From Parachlorella kessleri (Eukaryota > Chlorophyta > Trebouxiophyceae > Chlorellales > Chlorellaceae), in NCBI GenBank assembly GCA_001598975.1, contig BBXU01001199.1, positions 1 to 15,973 of the forward strand: 15,973 bases of DNA, given 5' to 3'. The notes under the pieces are model-generated. The model did not search any database. It was not told where the DNA came from and saw only the letters and a list, made by a program, of their open reading frames with translations. Of this stretch, positions 133 through 15,973 are shown piece after piece (positions within the stretch are counted from its first letter, which is position 1; each line of letters starts with the position of its first letter). The translations under genes were made by a program, and so were the position numbers.

Positions 133-1900
133 ACCGCCTGGAACGAGATTATAATGGGGTACCTGGTGACGATGGGCACCGACATCCCCGGGATGAGGTA
201 CCGCCTGCTGCCGCATGCCCAGTACTCTAACATAGGTAAACAGGCCCACACCACACCCAATGGTTGTGTTGTTGGGACCCCAGCTGGGTTTATGCGCCAG
301 CCGTGAAATGGCTGGAGGTTTGGGCGCCTTGGAAGGTCTCGCTCTGGCAGGTGTTCAGCTGGGTTTGGTGCTTGATGGAGCGTCCCCTTCCTTAAGTGGA
401 CGAACCAGGGGCCTGTGGTGGTAGCTGACTCACCCTTATGACGCATAGCATGGCTTGGGTGCAGATGTGGCCAAGGAGCGGAAGAACCAGGGCTTGGGAT
501 GGTAGCTGACTCATCCTTATGACGCATAGCATGGCTTGGGTGCAGATGTGGCCAAGGAGCGGAAGAACCAGGGCTTGGGATGGTAGCTGACTCGTCCTCA
601 TGACTCATAGCTTGGCTTGGGTGCAGATGTGGCCAAGAAGCGGAAGAACCAGGGCTTGGGATGGTAGCTGACTCGTCCTTATGACTCATAGCATGGCTTG
701 GGTGCAGATGTGGCCAAGAAGCGGAAGAACCAGGGGCTGCCGGTGGACCAGGTCATCCTGCATGCGGGCTACTACCACGGCAAGGACAAGGTGGGTAAAG
801 GAGAATATTCCCTGGCCTGGTGGTCATGACCTCACCTCATCGTGCATGCGGGCTACTACCACGGCAAGTGCAAGGTGGGTAAAGGAGAGTGTTCTCCTGG
901 CCTGCTGGTCAGTACTCCATATAGCCTCTGAAGGCTGTTTCGTACTGCCTTCATGGCTTTGTTACCATGGCAAAAAGATGGCAGGTGGTGGGGAGCCCTC
1001 CCCTGGTCTGTGGGTCTTTTCCGCAGCTCAGCCCTTTTTCATGGGGCGGTTAGCATGGCCGGGGGGGGGTGCATGCTGGAGATACCCTTATTCTGATCTG
1101 TGGGTCACTTACATACTGACCTGTTGGAAAGGCCCTGAAAAGCAGCAGCATCCATGCAGCGCTGCCCCAAACGTACAAGGCAGTGGTGGGCTACTTCGTG
1201 AAGGGTCTGTTGGGCGGAAAGCTGTTGTTTGCTTTGGCCAGCCGTGTCTTAAGTGGCCTTGTCAGACTGTCTAGGGGATGCCTGTTCCTGTGGTATGTGC
1301 ATGCGCCGACAGGTGGAAAGAAAGTGGATGTTTTTTACCTCGGCCCTGGCAGGGCTGGAACAGTGACGTGTAGCAGTGCGCTGCCAACCATGTTGCCAAA
1401 TATAGGGCTCAGCGGGGGTGCTGTGCCACCTGGCCCTGCGTCCAAGAGGCCCCCACTTGGTGGTTCGCGCTGGCTATGAGCGACTCAGCGGCCGCCGCTG
1501 CCCGCTGCTGCAGGCCGACAACTACCGGGAGCAGGGGCTGTATCACGCCGACTACATCGGCCACATCGCGAAATCCCAGGCAGCCCCCCAAGCTGTGGCG
1601 CGGCAGCTGTCAACACCTGTGGCCACCACGTCAGCAGGGGGCCCCAGCGCAGGCGCCGGCGGGAAGGTCCCCGCCGCGGGCGCAAGCGCCGCCGCGGCCG
1701 CAAGCGTCGCCGCTGCCAGCGGCTGCTCCCCCTGGTTCAGCGGCTCCCTGTCGAGCATGGTCGCGTGCGTGCTGATCGGCTGCACCGGGGGGCTGCTGCT
1801 GTGGCCGTTTGTGACTCGGAGGCGGGGCCTGCATTTGAAGCAGCCTCGGAACTGGGCAGGTGCTCCCCTGGCCAACGGCTTAGCCAATGGCAAGGCGTGA
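133..1900 (+). CDS. Unrecognised protein with C-terminal membrane segment (5' partial, 4 exons)
   Basis: Predicted exons are 133-235, 708-794, 1160-1204 and 1413-1900 (TGA). Phases agree throughout and give 240 residues in this window; the gene begins before position 1. The first three exons and the start of the fourth read as an ordinary globular protein, with segments such as PGMRYRLLPHAQYSNIG, VDQVILHAGYYHGKDK and ADNYREQGLYHADYIGHI. About 60 Ala/Ser/Gly-rich residues follow. Then comes one hydrophobic helix (SSMVACVLIGCTGGLLLWPF, about 1750-1811) with a basic TRRRG stop-transfer sequence and a short tail, so the protein is probably anchored in a membrane by its C terminus. I do not recognise the family. 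Exons 1, 2 and the coding part of 4 are fairly secure. The 45-base exon 3 and the acceptor at 1412 are less so; an alternative donor after 790 would change the phase. Confidence 0.6.
404..735 (+). repeat. 81-bp tandem repeat carrying copies of an exon's acceptor
   Basis: Units of 81 bp start at 421, 502, 583 and 664, with a partial unit before the first. Each holds a stretch from GTAGCTGACTC to a splice acceptor (GGGTGCAG ending at 464, 545, 626 and 707) and the first ~30 bases of exon 2 of the surrounding gene. Only the last unit runs on into the real exon. In the three upstream copies the coding frame meets TAG about 40 bases after the acceptor. Unit 3 differs from the others by several substitutions. 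The repeat lies in the intron between 236 and 707. Confidence 0.9.
753..911 (+). repeat. 84-bp duplication of the exon 2 tail and its donor
   Basis: Positions 753-826 are repeated at 837-911. Both copies hold GCATGCGGGCTACTACCACG followed by GGCAAG, a variable triplet (GAC or TGC) and AAGGTGGGTAAAGGAGA, that is, the end of exon 2 with its donor. The second copy has no acceptor before it and looks like an intronic relic. Reading through the first donor reaches TGA at about 825. The remaining intron up to 1159 shows no other structure. Confidence 0.85.
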
Positions 1901-5522: not shown

Positions 5523-8500
5523 TCAACAAGTATACTCCAGAACCAGCTCCTCAGTGCAGTCCTCCAGCAAGTCCACCAGCTCACTGCAAAGCATGCACAT
5601 GGGCATGTCAGCGAGCATCAAGTTGAGGCTCCCCCAGACAACAGGTAGGCGGCACTAAAACCGCATCTTACATGGTGATGGTGCAGACTATGCTATCCAA
5701 AATTGCTGGCTTGTCCAGTGCTACATCACTCTTGTGAGGTAAAAGGTTGTACAGGCCCTCGTGGCCGCGCCAAAATAGTACTTCTGTGACGGCAAAGTTA
5801 TCCTGTTGCAGACCCTGCAAGCCGACCTTTGCCGTACCACGCCACCCTCACCGTATCGTAACACGGTCACGCAAGAGCAGGGAGCCCTCGGCGTTGGTGG
5901 TGCAGATAGCGTCAAAGTTGGCGGAGGAGTCCAGGTCATTGGCAACTGCCAACCCCAAGGGCCGTGCAAAGGCGGCTGTGCCGTACTGCTGGCTGAGGCC
6001 AAAGGCCATCGTCTGCACGAGGAAGACCGCGACTGGAGTAAAATATGTGTTAACCATGGGCTAGGGTAGAACCTGCAGCTGTACAAGGAAGGGTTACAGG
6101 CTGCCATGTGAGTCAACAAACCAGAATGGGGCCGCTAAGACCAGGCCACAGAACGGTCACATCTTCAGCTGTTCTAAGACAACACTGCTACTGCTGCTGT
6201 GGCCTCACGACTAACAGCCCAATGCCCCCACCTGTCTAAGCTCTCCGATGCTCATTCCTGCTGGGCAGCACAGGTAACGCATCGCCCACTCCAGCCCCCC
6301 GGCTGGCTCTAGGCGAATCTGCGCCACAGGCGTCACCCCCGCAAACGCAGTCCGCATGGGCCGCTGCTGCGCCAACTGCTGCGCCCGGGCTTTAGCAACC
6401 TCATCGGCAGCTGCCTCTCCAGACCGCTGACGGCTTAGCTGCTGTACGTGCTGCCTGCTGCTCGGCGGCTGGGCTGCCTGTGTGGAGGGCTTGCTTCCAG
6501 GAACACTAACAGTGTCTCCGCCTTCTTGACCAAGCTGCTCTTTGTACTGCTGCCTGCTCGCAACGCGAACACAAACATGTCAGCAATTCATGTGAATAGT
6601 ACATCAATGGCAGCCCTACTGTCAGAGGTGAAGGCTTGATACCATCAGCTACCTTGCAAGGCAGCCAATCAAATGAAGCATCAGGAAGGGTCCCTGACGT
6701 GAAGACCGCTGCCTCTATCTCACCTGAGATGTGGTAGGTTGAGCTGCGCCTTGCTGCCAAGGCGCCGCAGCTGCTCGAGGTCATATGCCTTGGCCGCCTC
6801 CAAGGGCGTGTCAAAGTGCCCCAGGCCGGTCTCCTTGCCTCCGAACTTGACGCGAGCCTGATAGCGACCATTGTACAACCTTACTCCCCTGCAGCACTAT
6901 CAAACTTGTGACAGGGTGCTAGGGCAGAACAAAAGCTGCAGCCGTAGTCAGCAGTTGTTGCATGGCCCCTCCATGCATGAGACATGTTGCATTGCACGGC
7001 TTGGCTACGCAGCATACATGCCATAATAGGCCTTGTAATCACATTGAAGGCCTGGCACACTTGCCGCCCACCTATACTTAACCCCCGTCGGCGAGAGCAG
7101 CTCTGGAGTGGAGGTCCGCTGTCGCTTTGCTGCATCCTCGGCTTCGCTGGCGGATGCCTCACCCACACCCTGTTGCGAGAGGCTGCGTTTAAGGCTGGTG
7201 AGGGTGCCAGGGGAACCCGATGCTGCATGGCCCAGCTGGTGCGAGCTGCTCGCCTGCCCAGCCTCTGACAGCGGCACGTTGGCTGCCTGCTGTACTTTTG
7301 GCAGCTGAGATGCGCCTGTGGTCACAGTGATATGCACCATGGCATCAGATGCAAGGGCTGCTGAGTGCTGCTGCTGCGTGGGCTGCGTGTGCAACCCTGG
7401 CTGTGGCGGCACTGCCTTGGGCGGTGGCGGTGGCGGTGGCCGCTGCTTGCGCTCCTCCTGTGCCTGTGACGAGATAAGAAAGGTGTGGTAAGGAGCCAGC
7501 GGCGCTGAAGACCTGCATGGCCTTTAGGTTGGGTACGTAAGCTTTTAAGCATCTGGCCTGGACTTACAGGACAAAAAAACATAGAGCTTCAGGGACCATG
7601 CGTCTGCAAAAATGTATAGCACAGGCACAAGATCACACAGTCAGACTGGCGGCAGCACTGCACCTTCAGCAGCATCTTGCCAATGGCCTTTGCACGCTCC
7701 AGAGTATTGGAGGAGGGCGCAATGGCCTCCTCAAAGGCATCTAGGTCGCCGAAGAGAATCTTGAGCAAGTGGTCAAACTGGGGGTCCTGCGGGAGGGGAT
7801 GCAACACCATGAATGCGCAATCAAAGAATTGGCTGCCAGCAGATAACAACACCTATCAAGTTGATGTGGCTGCAGGCAGTGGGAGTTTAGAATTACAATC
7901 GTGTTAAAGCCCTTTGCAGGACGACTTACCGCTCGGCAATCCCTGCGGCTTGAGAACTCGACACGACACTGGGGGCAGTTGTTACCCCTGCACTGGAAGC
8001 AAGGTGTATGTTGACAGAGTCCAAGCTGTACTAGTATGCGAACGGTATTGTGCTCGCAGCACGGAGAGGATGTCCTTGCAATGGCCATCCCACATTCCGA
8101 CTCACCGCTGACTGCGAAGCCACTTCTCGATGCACGCCTTACAAAAGCGATGCATGCAAACAGAGACTGCATGAGTGTTACGCAGGATGCCTGCAAAACC
8201 AGAACCAAGCTCTTATTGGGACATGCTCTCAGTGCACTTGGAAGCCTTACCCTCACTGCGCAAGCTCAGGTTGCCTTGCTTTGCAGCCTTGGTAGCACAA
8301 CGTCGCACTACTGGCAGGATGGAGTGATTTTCAAGGTGGTGGACGCAACAGAAAGCGCAAACAGGCACCTTGACTCTTTTATGCCTGACAGCTAACTCAC
8401 CCATGCATATTGAGCAGCGTACGTTGTCCACCAGGGCATCCAGGTCCACTGGCAGCATACTGCAACCAGCATAACACGCCCAAGTCAGCACCGAGGTGGT

Positions 8501-8716
8501 CAACCCCCCTGAGCTGCAGCCTCAAGAAGAGATGCCAAAATGCAGGTTGCGGAGCCATAAGGCAAGCCTCCTGAAGCACCTGGGCTTGCCGTTCTCTCGC
8601 TGGGCCACAGGAGCCGCGGCGACAGCGTCCTGACAGGGGTGGGCCATACTGTGCTGCAGGGCCACCTGGCCGCTCTCCAGTGGACACAAACCGGCGATAT
8701 GGGTGTCTGCATGCAT
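5523..8716 (-). CDS. RING1-type RING / AP2 / RAWUL protein, PRC1-like E3 ubiquitin ligase
   Basis: Exons, in gene order, are 8580-8716, 8401-8459, 8106-8190, 7930-7987, 7664-7786, 7072-7463, 6724-6888, 6232-6553, 5672-5814 and 5523-5583 (TGA). Every junction is phase-consistent: 1545 bases, 514 residues. Residues 58-113 are a C3HC4 RING (C61, C64, C77, H79, C82, C85, C98, C101) with the RING1 hallmarks VRCSICMGILRNT, HRFCKACIEK, GNNCPQCR and the following SRRDCRADPQFDHLL, as in plant RING1A/B. Residues 155-280 are a linker with a PPPPPPP run and a basic KRQR. Residues 283-337 are an AP2 domain (KYRGV, YQARVKF, LGHFDTPLEAAKAYD, GSKAQLNLP). Residues 418-514 resemble a RAWUL domain (LEWAMRYLCCPAGMSIGELR, VTEVLFW, ELVDLLEDCTEELVLEY). 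Known role of the family: histone H2A ubiquitylation in the nucleus within PRC1. The start is the first ATG after an in-frame TAG. RING and AP2 are firm; the RAWUL assignment is good but less certain. Confidence 0.85.
5852..6012 (-). other. Optional (cassette) exon inside the RAWUL region
   Basis: A 161-base segment lies between a GTGCAG acceptor and a strong ACG|GTGAGG donor. It is open in the phase that follows the upstream exon and reads like real protein (TMAFGLSQQYGTAAFARPLG, then LAVANDLDSSANFDAICT and EGSLLLRDRVTI). Because 161 is not a multiple of three, including it shifts the next exon into a frame that stops at TAG (5721-5723). Skipping it joins GELRQ to GLQQDNFAVTEVLF in phase and restores a RAWUL-like sequence. 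I do not recognise the encoded segment. It may be a regulated cassette exon, or a coding exon made to look out of frame by a one- or two-base sequence error. Confidence 0.5.
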
Positions 8717-13100: not shown

Positions 13101-15667
13101 CCTGGGGAGAAGCAGGCGGGGGTGGCAGAGTACTTAGCTTCAGGGGGGGCAAGGGCGCCGGCAGTTGCAGTGCTGGGAGCGTTTGCCGCTGCCAAGGATG
13201 CCCTGGCACCCCTGCTGCAGGTGCGCTGCTGGCATAAGGTTGGACCACGTTGCCTTGCAGTGTGCTTGCTCTGGCATGGCTTGCGTATGTGTATGGATGG
13301 GGTAGTCTGTGTGACTATCATGGGGAGAGGCGGCTGAGTGGCCTGGACCACTCCCTGTGCCCTGCCTCCTTTCTGTCACTCTGGGACAATTTTGTGTCTG
13401 GTGCCCTCGCCGGACTAGTGTGCTTTTAGCTTTGTTGTGGTGGAAGGAGTAGCCCGCAAGCCCTTTACCAGCTGGTGTCCTGGGCGTGTCTGCAGCCGGG
13501 CAAGCCAGCGTCGGAAGCACCGAACAAGCCCGCGCCACAGCCAGAAGCAAAGCTGGCGCCGCCACCGCCACCAGCCACGCAACAAAGCCCGCCGCCACCG
13601 CCGCAGCAGGTGAGGCAAGCAGAATAGCAGACAGCCCTAGGTGTGCAGGAGCAGGGCTGAGGCCCCAATGTAAGGTCCAGGGCAGGAGAGCAGCCTACCT
13701 GACTTGGCCCCTAGCTGCGCAGAACTTGGCTTGGGCAGGGGCAAGGCATGAGTTTCGCGCCTCCCTGTTTGGTACTCTTTGGGTTTATTGAATTTATCTC
13801 CTTCAGTCCTTTTTCCTTGCAAGCTACCTGCACTTTCTCAGCAGAGCAGCCATTGGCAGCAAAGCATGCAGCAGCAAAGCGCACTAGTAGAGTGTTACCA
13901 GAGGGGCTCTGGCAGGGCGCCCATGTATGGCCTCCAACCTACCTCACACGCTGCTGTTTCAGCGGGTGTTTGTGATACTGGGTGCCTTGCACTCCAGACC
14001 TTTGGGGTGTGCAGTTTTCGGGCTGCAAAAGTTTACTTAGGTGCCTAGGGTTGTATGTCGACCAACCTGGGCGCACGGAGCCTGAGGGCCAAGGTGTAGG
14101 ACCCTCAGCAACTTCAGAGGCCTGGATGGGACTCCTTAGTCTTGCTGGCCTTACTCTGTAGGCTGGGGGTGGCTGGCGGCAGGAGGTGTCTCGTGGATCT
14201 GTGGTGGAGCCAGCAGAGAGGCTCTGGGAGCGGCAATATCAAGCACAGGTGAAGGAACATGTGTAGTCTTTATTTTGTATACTTCACATTGGTTTTGGTG
14301 TAAAAGTCGTTCAGCGTTCAGACGACTGACGGAAGAGTGATAGGTGGGCTTTGGGTCTTGGACAGCTGCTGGCTGCTTGGCAGGCGGTGGGTGGGAAGCA
14401 CAGGACTGGCCAGCTGCGAGAACAGCAAGCATGGCACATGGCTGCTTGTTAGCAGGCCATACCTTGGCAGTAGTTGGTGATGAAGCCTTTAGGCGCGGGC
14501 GCCATGGGGGCCCAACCCACTGTTCTTTTTTCGTGGTAGCGGAACTGCTTGCTTTCAACTGAAGCATTCCCTTTGGTAGGTACTGGTTGCTGTGGGAAGC
14601 GCAGCACTAGGAGGCAGGGGCTGGCTCTGGGGCACCTCTGCTTAGCACCAAACCCAGGTAACTTTCACATAACTGGCCCTTCTGACCGGTGAGTGCGCGT
14701 CGTGTCTGCAGAAGGCTGCTGCAGCAGGCAAGCCACAGCCGGCGGCGCCAGGCATAGCGTCAGAAGCACGACAGGCGGAGCAGGCACAACAGGTGGGAGC
14801 AGGGACAGCAGCAGAGCCCCAGGAGACGCTGCCCCCCAAGGAACAGTCACCACCCCAGCAGCCGGCGGCGGCAACGGAGGACGACAGCGGCAGCGCTGTT
14901 CTGTCCGAGCTGGAGTCCGCGGTGCAGGAGCACTGGCAGCAGCAGGAGGAGCAGCTACAGGCTGGGAGCTCTGCTGTGGCTGAGAGCAGCAGAGTGGAGC
15001 CTCCAGGAGGAGCAGCGGCAGCGTCTGGGGAGCCCGAGGCCTCCCAAGAGCAGCAGCAGCAGCAGGAAGTGGAGGAGAAGGAAGAGCAGCTAGGGCGCCC
15101 GGCTGACAGGAAACAGCGACAGCAAGAGGAGACGGTCATGGCGCAGTCGGAGGCTGCCGATGCGGCACAGCGGGCCCAGCAGGAGCCATCACAGCAGGCT
15201 CAGCAGGGGCAGGAGCCGCAACCGGGGCCGGAAGGCAGTACCCCTGGGACTACACCCACTGAAGGAGAGCCTAATGGAGCCTTTGGGGGCTTGCTGACTA
15301 AGCTGAGGGCCTCCGTGGACGAGCACTGGCAGCAGCAGGAGCAGCAGCTGCAGCCCGGGCTGCCAGCCAGCAGCTCCGACCCTGCCGTGGTCGCCAGAGC
15401 TTTGCAGCGCGCTGCCGAGCCTGAACAAGGCAGGGAAGCCGGCGCCGCGGTGCAGCCGCCGCAGCAGGGTGAGCCACAGCAGGCACAGCAGGCGCAGCAG
15501 CTGCTCCGGCTGGTGGCTGCGGGCACCTCCATCCCCCACCCGGCCAAGGCGGAGAGCGGGGGCGAGGACGCGTTCTTCGTGAGCGGCCAGGGGCTGGGGG
15601 CTGTGGGCGTGGCGGACGGCGTGGGCGGCTGGGCCCTGGAGGGGATCAACCCCGCGCTCTACCCCAG
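10106..15667 (+). CDS. Chloroplast PP2C-family phosphatase, BIPP2C1-like (3' partial)
   Basis: Exons: 10106-10246, 10387-10452, 10680-10912, 11329-11564, 11844-12169, 12456-13220, 13496-13609, 14162-14248 and 14712-15667; the rest lies past the window. Phases agree at every junction, giving about 974 residues. Residues 1-47 look like a chloroplast transit peptide (MVQALQQSSVGSSTG, then Arg/Ser-rich, ending VVVASAG). A hydrophobic stretch around 70-88 ends in AQA and could be a second targeting signal. Residues 167-181 (VATAVVVVAVALAAL) are a probable membrane helix. A long Gln/Ala/Glu coiled-coil-like and Pro/Ser-rich region follows. At about 925-974 the PP2C fold begins: SIPHPAKAESGGEDAFFV and VGVADGVGGWALEGIN carry the metal-binding Asp of the first PP2C motifs. 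This matches the plant BIPP2C1 (PP2C/SpoIIE-like) group, Ser/Thr phosphatases with long N termini. Substrate unknown. The middle exons are less certain than the ends. Confidence 0.8.
10938..11088 (+). repeat. Long imperfect intronic hairpin (52-bp arms)
   Basis: Left arm 10938-10989 pairs with right arm 11037-11088 around a 47-base loop. By my count, in RNA the 52 positions include about four G:U pairs and four mismatches with no bulges; the core GATATCAGCACGCTGG pairs perfectly. The loop has an inner AATCCT/AGGATT stem. It lies wholly inside the intron 10913-11328 of the PP2C gene. It could be a miniature inverted-repeat element or a microRNA-type precursor. Confidence 0.8.
11813..11836 (+). 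repeat. Three 8-bp tandem units next to a splice acceptor
   Basis: GCTAAATG, GCTAAATG and ACTAAATG are consecutive and end just before the GCTGCAG acceptor of the exon at 11844. The placement suggests they replace the usual pyrimidine tract. One unit contains CTAAATG and another ACTAAAT, which resemble branch-point sequences; whether they serve as such is unknown. Confidence 0.7.
13842..13892 (+). other. Possible extra PP2C exon with the HWQQ motif
   Basis: After a TTTCTCAGCAG acceptor the plus strand reads SSHWQQSMQQQSAL in phase 0, followed by GTAGAG, a possible phase-0 donor. The translation resembles the EHWQQQE motif found twice in the last exon of the same gene. Including or skipping it keeps the frame. 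It is short and the donor is ordinary, so it is only a candidate. Confidence 0.25.
14249..14711 (+). other. Intron of the PP2C gene, nothing further seen
   Basis: This 463-base intron separates the 29-residue exon at 14162-14248 from the large last exon. It starts GTGAAGG and ends TGTCTGCAG. The open frames on both strands inside it have no recognisable content. Confidence 0.55.
14907..14966 (+). repeat. 60-bp internal coding repeat, copy 1
   Basis: Encodes ELESAVQEHWQQQEEQLQAG. It is the counterpart of 15300-15359 in the same exon, with the core EHWQQQE-QLQ-G conserved in both DNA and protein. It is likely part of a coiled-coil or Gln-rich segment of the phosphatase's N-terminal extension. 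Confidence 0.85.
15300..15359 (+). repeat. 60-bp internal coding repeat, copy 2
   Basis: Encodes KLRASVDEHWQQQEQQLQPG, in the same frame and orientation as copy 1 at 14907-14966 and 393 bases downstream. It lies about 70 residues before the PP2C domain begins. Confidence 0.85.
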
Positions 15668-15973
15668 GTAAGATTCCCTGCCATAAGGTCAGGACGGTGG
15701 GAAAAAAATGAACTCACTGTGCCCTGGGGTCTGGAAGTGTTGAAGCCCACACCACCTATGTGCTCTCACTTTGCTTTGGAACTTCGTCGTGCAGCAGTCT
15801 GGCGGCATTGAGCGCATGTGATACAGACAGCAATTTACAGTGTAGCTGACAGATTCCCGTGGACGGTGACAGTATTGCACAGGCCACTTGTCCCCTGTTA
15901 CTCTCTTTTGGCCCCCCAAGCTTTCTCTCCTTCGCTTGGTTTCCCATACTCACCAGCATGAGGCTGCCCCCCC
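15668..15973 (+). other. Start of the next PP2C intron, to the window edge
   Basis: GTAAGATT follows the phase-2 exon end at 15667. No acceptor followed by a recognisable PP2C continuation (the helix after the GIN motif) is seen before the window ends, so the rest of the catalytic domain lies outside. Confidence 0.6.

What the first reader, a model, noticed from the sequence alone, without database searches (positions are those of the whole stretch)
5523..8716. AP2 DNA-binding domain inserted into a RING1/RAWUL Polycomb-type ligase
The sequence shows a RING1-type RING, an AP2 domain and a RAWUL-like C terminus linked by exons whose phases all agree. RING1 proteins of plants and animals have RING plus RAWUL and depend on partners for DNA targeting, while AP2 proteins are transcription factors without a RING1 module. 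A fusion would place H2A-ubiquitylating activity directly at AP2 target sites, a self-recruiting PRC1. I know of no described RING1-AP2-RAWUL protein, but I could not search for one.
Basis: partly seen in the sequence, partly recalled or inferred. Interest (0 to 1): 0.9.

Follow-up and report, generated by a model that had tools for sequence, protein, structure and literature searches.

The report
Polycomb RING1 ligase carrying AP2 domain
In a Chlorella-like green alga one predicted gene joins a RING1-type Polycomb RING finger, an AP2 domain (the DNA-reading module of many plant transcription factors) and a C-terminal domain with a predicted ubiquitin-like fold, and related algae keep the same order, so the protein is predicted to be a chromatin-marking enzyme that finds its DNA targets by itself rather than through separate recruiters.

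The parts
8580..8716 (-). probable first coding exon (45 codons and two bases; start at 8716 or the later in-frame ATG)
   Evidence: translation; splices in phase to give ...NGKPS before M, matching P0002 ...DNKPSMLPVDL; poorly conserved otherwise, so less certain
8401..8458 (-). exon with MLPVDLDALVDNVRCSICM: start of RING
   Evidence: aligned with P0002; PDB RING1B match
8106..8190 (-). RING core exon (GILRNTHAVSVCMHRFCKACIEKWLRSQ)
7930..7987 (-). RING end exon (RGNNCPQCRVEFSSRRDCRA)
7664..7786 (-). RING1-type extension after the RING (DPQFDHLLKILFGDLDAFEE...)
   Evidence: aligned to DPNFDALISKIYP of RING1B
7072..7463 (-). low-complexity linker exon ending in ...KYR, the first AP2 residues
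6724..6888 (-). AP2 exon, 165 bases, phase 2 at both ends (GVRLYNGRYQARVKFGGKETGLGHFDTPLEAAKAYDLEQLRRLGSKAQLNLPHL)
   Evidence: fold by the homologue P0002
6232..6553 (-). linker exon and first strands of the RAWUL-like domain
   Evidence: fold by the homologue P0002
5852..6012 (-). RAWUL-like domain, middle exon
5523..5583 (-). RAWUL-like domain, last exon and stop

Best explanation
By its spliced reading this gene encodes a RING1-type RING protein with an AP2 domain between its RING and its RAWUL-like C terminus, and it likely works as a RING1 ubiquitin ligase that is predicted to bind DNA through its own AP2 domain. Shown by sequence, predicted fold and relatives: the three modules, their order, and conservation in several Chlorella-like algae. 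Inferred: the RING pairs with a second RING protein (itself or a PCGF), takes ubiquitin from an E2 and puts it on the C-terminal lysines of H2A; the AP2 domain docks the ligase on DNA, either at chosen sequences or on nucleosome-flanking DNA; the RAWUL-like domain holds partners such as Alfin-like proteins. The AP2 was probably gained once, in the stem of Chlorellales, after the split from the Trebouxia and Coccomyxa lines.
Confidence: 0.72

Rival explanations
1. The fusion protein is real, but the AP2 domain no longer reads DNA sequence; it acts as a general nucleosome/DNA grip or as a protein-binding module. (This overlaps in part with the best explanation, so the odds do not add to one.)
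For: Five of seven ERF96 contact positions differ in the window (one of them R31 to K), with R39 to E and W41 lost in 6 of 6 members compared. P0028 (Nannochloris) has a very diverged AP2 (16.9 bits; PDB WRI1 E 0.037). P0027 has none.
Against: R16 and R19 are kept in 6 of 6; the domain is basic in all nine family members measured, net +4 to +8 (ordinary AP2 pieces -5 to +7); the fold match to DNA-bound WRI1 is close, and WRI1 itself differs from ERF96 at six of these seven positions.
Confidence: 0.2
2. Two or three neighbouring genes (RING1, AP2, C-terminal piece) are wrongly joined by hand splicing.
For: The public P. kessleri model P0001 lacks the RING exons; no transcript of the window was available.
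Against: P0002 and P0024 are full-length single frames with the same order, and the Micractinium and Chlorella vulgaris models agree. P0001 itself begins with the start of exon 1, goes on with exon 4 and joins AP2 to the RAWUL-like end. The AP2 motif spans an exon junction.
Confidence: 0.04
3. The protein is a ubiquitin ligase for non-histone targets at AP2 sites (or moonlights outside Polycomb), not an H2A-modifying PRC1.
For: Published surveys found algal RING1 often without other PRC1 parts and suggested moonlighting or mono-ubiquitylation unrelated to PRC1 (passages of PMC4397884, and PMC5405695). No PCGF was found here.
Against: The RING is closest to RING1B, including nucleosome-bound entries; the SRR/SKR stretch that aligns with SKR of RING1B stays basic in the family; H2A keeps the LLPKK end. 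Another survey finds RING1 and PCGF mostly kept together (passage of PMC10638273), so a PCGF may have been missed here.
Confidence: 0.2

Closest known systems
RING1 / RING1B (RNF2) and plant AtRING1a/b
   Same: N-terminal RING1-type RING with the following DPxFDxLL extension, and a C-terminal RAWUL-like ubiquitin fold.
   Different: An AP2 domain lies in the linker. The term AP2 has zero occurrences in the main text of three PRC1-evolution papers where I looked for it (PMC6599366, PMC10638273, PMC4397884).
Maize RING1a with a POU match, reported in PMC6599366 (passage)
   Same: A RING1 said to carry a DNA-binding domain; the nearest reported precedent that I saw.
   Different: A different domain (POU), in one maize protein in that passage; I did not test it. 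Here the domain is AP2, supported by fold and kept across several algal genera.
AP2 domains of WRI1 / ERF transcription factors
   Same: Three-strand-plus-helix AP2 fold and YRGVR...LG.F.T..EAA.AYD pattern.
   Different: Single AP2 inside a RING1-type protein; its own clade apart from the ERF and AP2-family domains compared; ERF contact residues partly lost.
AP2 domains of phage HNH homing endonucleases
   Same: Klebsiella phage Olmo endonuclease aligns at 47% over 53 residues, 1e-8, the best score outside the family in my set.
   Different: No HNH part seen here; the tree does not resolve whether the algal domain came from such an element or from a host AP2 gene; the Chlorella vulgaris domain found no phage match.
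VAL1/2-type recruitment of plant PRC1 (recalled; B3 DNA-binding partners)
   Same: A plant-type DNA-binding domain serves PRC1 targeting.
   Different: There the DNA-binding domain is on a separate protein; here it is part of RING1.

Membership tests
RING1 (Polycomb RING1/Sce) | C3HC4 RING most similar to RING1 rather than PCGF | tested here: met
RING1 (Polycomb RING1/Sce) | C-terminal RAWUL (ubiquitin-like) domain | tested here: met
RING1 (Polycomb RING1/Sce) | H2A ubiquitylation | not testable with these tools
   needs an assay; H2A target-like LLPKKT/S is present
AP2 domain | AP2 sequence and three-strand-plus-helix fold | tested here: met
AP2 domain | DNA binding | not testable with these tools
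   needs SELEX/EMSA
ERF subfamily (GCC-box binders) | conserved base-contact Arg/Trp residues | tested here: not met
   2 of 7 identical in the window; R39 to E and W41 lost in 6 of 6 members
canonical PRC1 | PCGF partner | tested here: inconclusive
   no clear PCGF in the own genome with two single-sequence queries (best E 0.017 and 7.6e-4, generic RING matches); exon-split genes can be missed
canonical PRC1 | chromobox/LHP1 reader | not tested
   none

The most novel reading that the evidence does not exclude
In Chlorella-like algae Polycomb repression is wired differently: RING1 carries its own sequence-reading AP2 domain, so one protein picks the genes and writes H2A ubiquitin on them, replacing the separate recruiters of plants and animals; the AP2 may have been captured from a mobile HNH homing endonuclease.
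Probability: 0.3. Interest if true: 0.9.

Novelty: new variant of a known kind. Interest (0 to 1): 0.76.

Why it matters
How PRC1 finds its genes is an open question, and in green algae RING1 has been found largely without the other PRC1 parts; two surveys read here in passages explain it as moonlighting or as activity unrelated to PRC1 (PMC4397884; PMC5405695). A RING1 with a built-in AP2 domain, kept across several genera, offers a direct and testable answer: identify the AP2 motif and see whether it predicts H2A ubiquitin in the genome. It would also be a natural example of the targeted ligase that is usually engineered by tethering (recalled).

Tried and rejected
Separate genes: rejected because of full-length single-frame homologues. 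Chance AP2 resemblance: rejected by PDB matches, shuffles and fold. ERF subfamily membership: rejected on contact residues. RAWUL by sequence: PDB phmmer gave two armadillo-repeat entries at E 0.18 and no RAWUL; Pfam RAWUL gave nothing in the protein or genome (the control rang nowhere, so it is uninformative). PCGF partner: not found, not excluded. Second RING1 gene: 15 matches in the genome; besides the window's I read 7 of the other 14 and saw no RING1-type extension, 7 were not read. Source of the AP2: a tree with four phage HNH domains leaves it open; a phage search with the Chlorella vulgaris domain gave no match; viral contigs gave no relative of the fusion. Nine full-text literature searches showed no RING1-AP2 protein in their listings, of which I saw titles and abstract starts; most subscription papers are not held. 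No RNA family in the window and no Pfam hit in eight other long frames. Rows dropped: the RING tree (21 rows) left out P0001, P0026 and P0030 (no RING in the model) and P0008 and P0012 (further Trebouxia rows); one search left out one own-genome piece under 41 residues, and there P0028 fell outside the other 8 family AP2 domains (93/93) on a long branch; one search left out P0025 (identical to P0017 there), P0028 and three own-genome pieces. The first fold model did not resolve the RING; the second did but was less sure of the AP2.

Full report
What is there. The window is contig C702 of a 50.9-Mb assembly; the protein database holds a Parachlorella kessleri protein (P0001) 100% identical over 86% of the product, so the source is most likely that trebouxiophyte alga (inference). 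On the minus strand nine exons with GT/AG introns and agreeing phases give 474 residues; a probable upstream exon, 8716-8580, raises this to 520 and reproduces the KPS-M junction seen in P0002. The AP2 exon (6888-6724) is 165 bases with phase 2 at both ends, as a shuffled exon could be (inference), and the first AP2 residues KYR come from the end of the preceding exon.

Relatives. Three protein searches, each scoring only the ~8,000 best word-sharing candidates, gave 30 distinct proteins; five are ordinary AP2 factors. Of the other 25, nine carry AP2 at E 9e-5 or better (P0001, P0002, P0003, P0004, P0017, P0024, P0025, P0026, P0030), one weakly (P0028, Nannochloris, 16.9 bits, E 0.046), and fifteen none. 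Not all nine show the whole order: P0002, P0003, P0004, P0017 and P0024 have RING, AP2 and RAWUL-like parts, and P0025 starts inside the RING; P0001 (the window's own gene) and P0026 (a second model from the P0017 Chlorella vulgaris contig) lack the RING in their models, and P0030 shows only AP2. Those without AP2 are Trebouxia, Apatococcus, Coccomyxa, Myrmecia, unnamed P0005, P0009, P0014 and P0018, and P0027. P0027 has the same RING and RAWUL type (1.8e-31 to the family RAWUL profile) but no AP2. On a RING tree of 21 rows the eight AP2 rows and P0027 are one side of a branch at 100/99 (drawn with a midpoint root; P0027 and P0028 are long branches), so one gain and one loss, or a gain with P0027 branching first, both fit. 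Seven family AP2 domains are one side of a branch at 97/92; with P0028 included it falls outside on a long branch. P0002, P0024 and P0025 carry the source label lgn, which I take from recall to mean assembled public reads; their unbroken frames on 1.8-4.6 kb contigs, where P. kessleri has at least eight introns, look like spliced mRNA (inference).

How it probably works. Shown: module order and conservation. Inferred: a RING1 ligase with its own DNA-docking domain. H2A ends in LLPKKT or LLPKKS in the 4 of 12 copies read; an Alfin-like match (the RAWUL-containing C terminus of AtRING1a binds the Alfin PAL domain, passage of PMC3900384) and an E(z)-type CXC are present. I saw no second RING1-like gene among the matches read (8 of 15, the window's included) and found no PCGF; AtRING1a can bind itself through its RING region, so a homodimer is possible, but a survey finds RING1 and PCGF mostly kept together. 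The AP2 keeps R16 and R19 of the ERF96 contact set in 6 of 6 members compared, but R39 is E and W41 is lost in 6 of 6 (contacts from passages of PMC7593309). GCC-box reading is therefore unlikely; WRI1 also departs from ERF96 at six of the seven positions and was crystallised on DNA.

Origin of the AP2. The window's AP2 also matches a phage homing endonuclease (Klebsiella phage Olmo, 47% over 53 residues, 1e-8; 113 phage records at E 0.01 or better), the best pairwise score outside the family in my set (133, against 108 for the best plant ERF). The tree does not decide between a mobile-element and a host-gene source, and the Chlorella vulgaris domain finds no phage match.

Literature. I saw the outline and passages of PMC6599366, and passages of PMC10638273, PMC5405695, PMC4397884, PMC3900384 and PMC7593309. 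The term AP2 does not occur in the main text of PMC6599366, PMC10638273 or PMC4397884; I did not look for it in PMC5405695. PMC6599366 does report a POU DNA-binding match in one maize RING1, which is the nearest precedent I saw. Nine searches listed no RING1-AP2 protein. Two of the papers treat chlorophyte RING1 as moonlighting or unrelated to PRC1, which is the open question this architecture makes testable.

Verdict. A real, conserved and, as far as these searches go, undescribed domain architecture of a known kind of protein; self-recruitment is the natural but untested reading.

Noticed in passing
window 5523-8458: The public P. kessleri model (P0001) ends exon 1 early and skips exons 2 and 3, so the deposited protein lacks its RING; an annotation error or a RING-less isoform.
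   Followed up: partly
window 394-735: 81-base tandem repeat, 4.2 copies, 94% matches.
   Followed up: no
window 14673-15671 (+): Long open frame ending in GEDAFFVSGQGLGAVGVADGVGGWALEGINPALYPR, which by recall resembles PP2C-type (PPTC7-like) phosphatases; Pfam gave no hit up to E 0.01.
   Followed up: partly
P0027 (protein, unnamed jgi contig): RING1 of the Chlorellales type with the same RAWUL but no AP2; its N terminus looks like intron read-through up to the position of the window's exon 1/2 junction (inference).
   Followed up: partly
L056 341-880: Phage HNH endonuclease with an AP2 domain 47% identical to the window's over 53 residues, a possible clue to the source of the AP2.
   Followed up: partly
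G000 contigs C904, C1244 and others: Many histone matches (55 to the Pfam histone family); 12 H2A matches, of which four were read and end in LLPKKT or LLPKKS.
   Followed up: no
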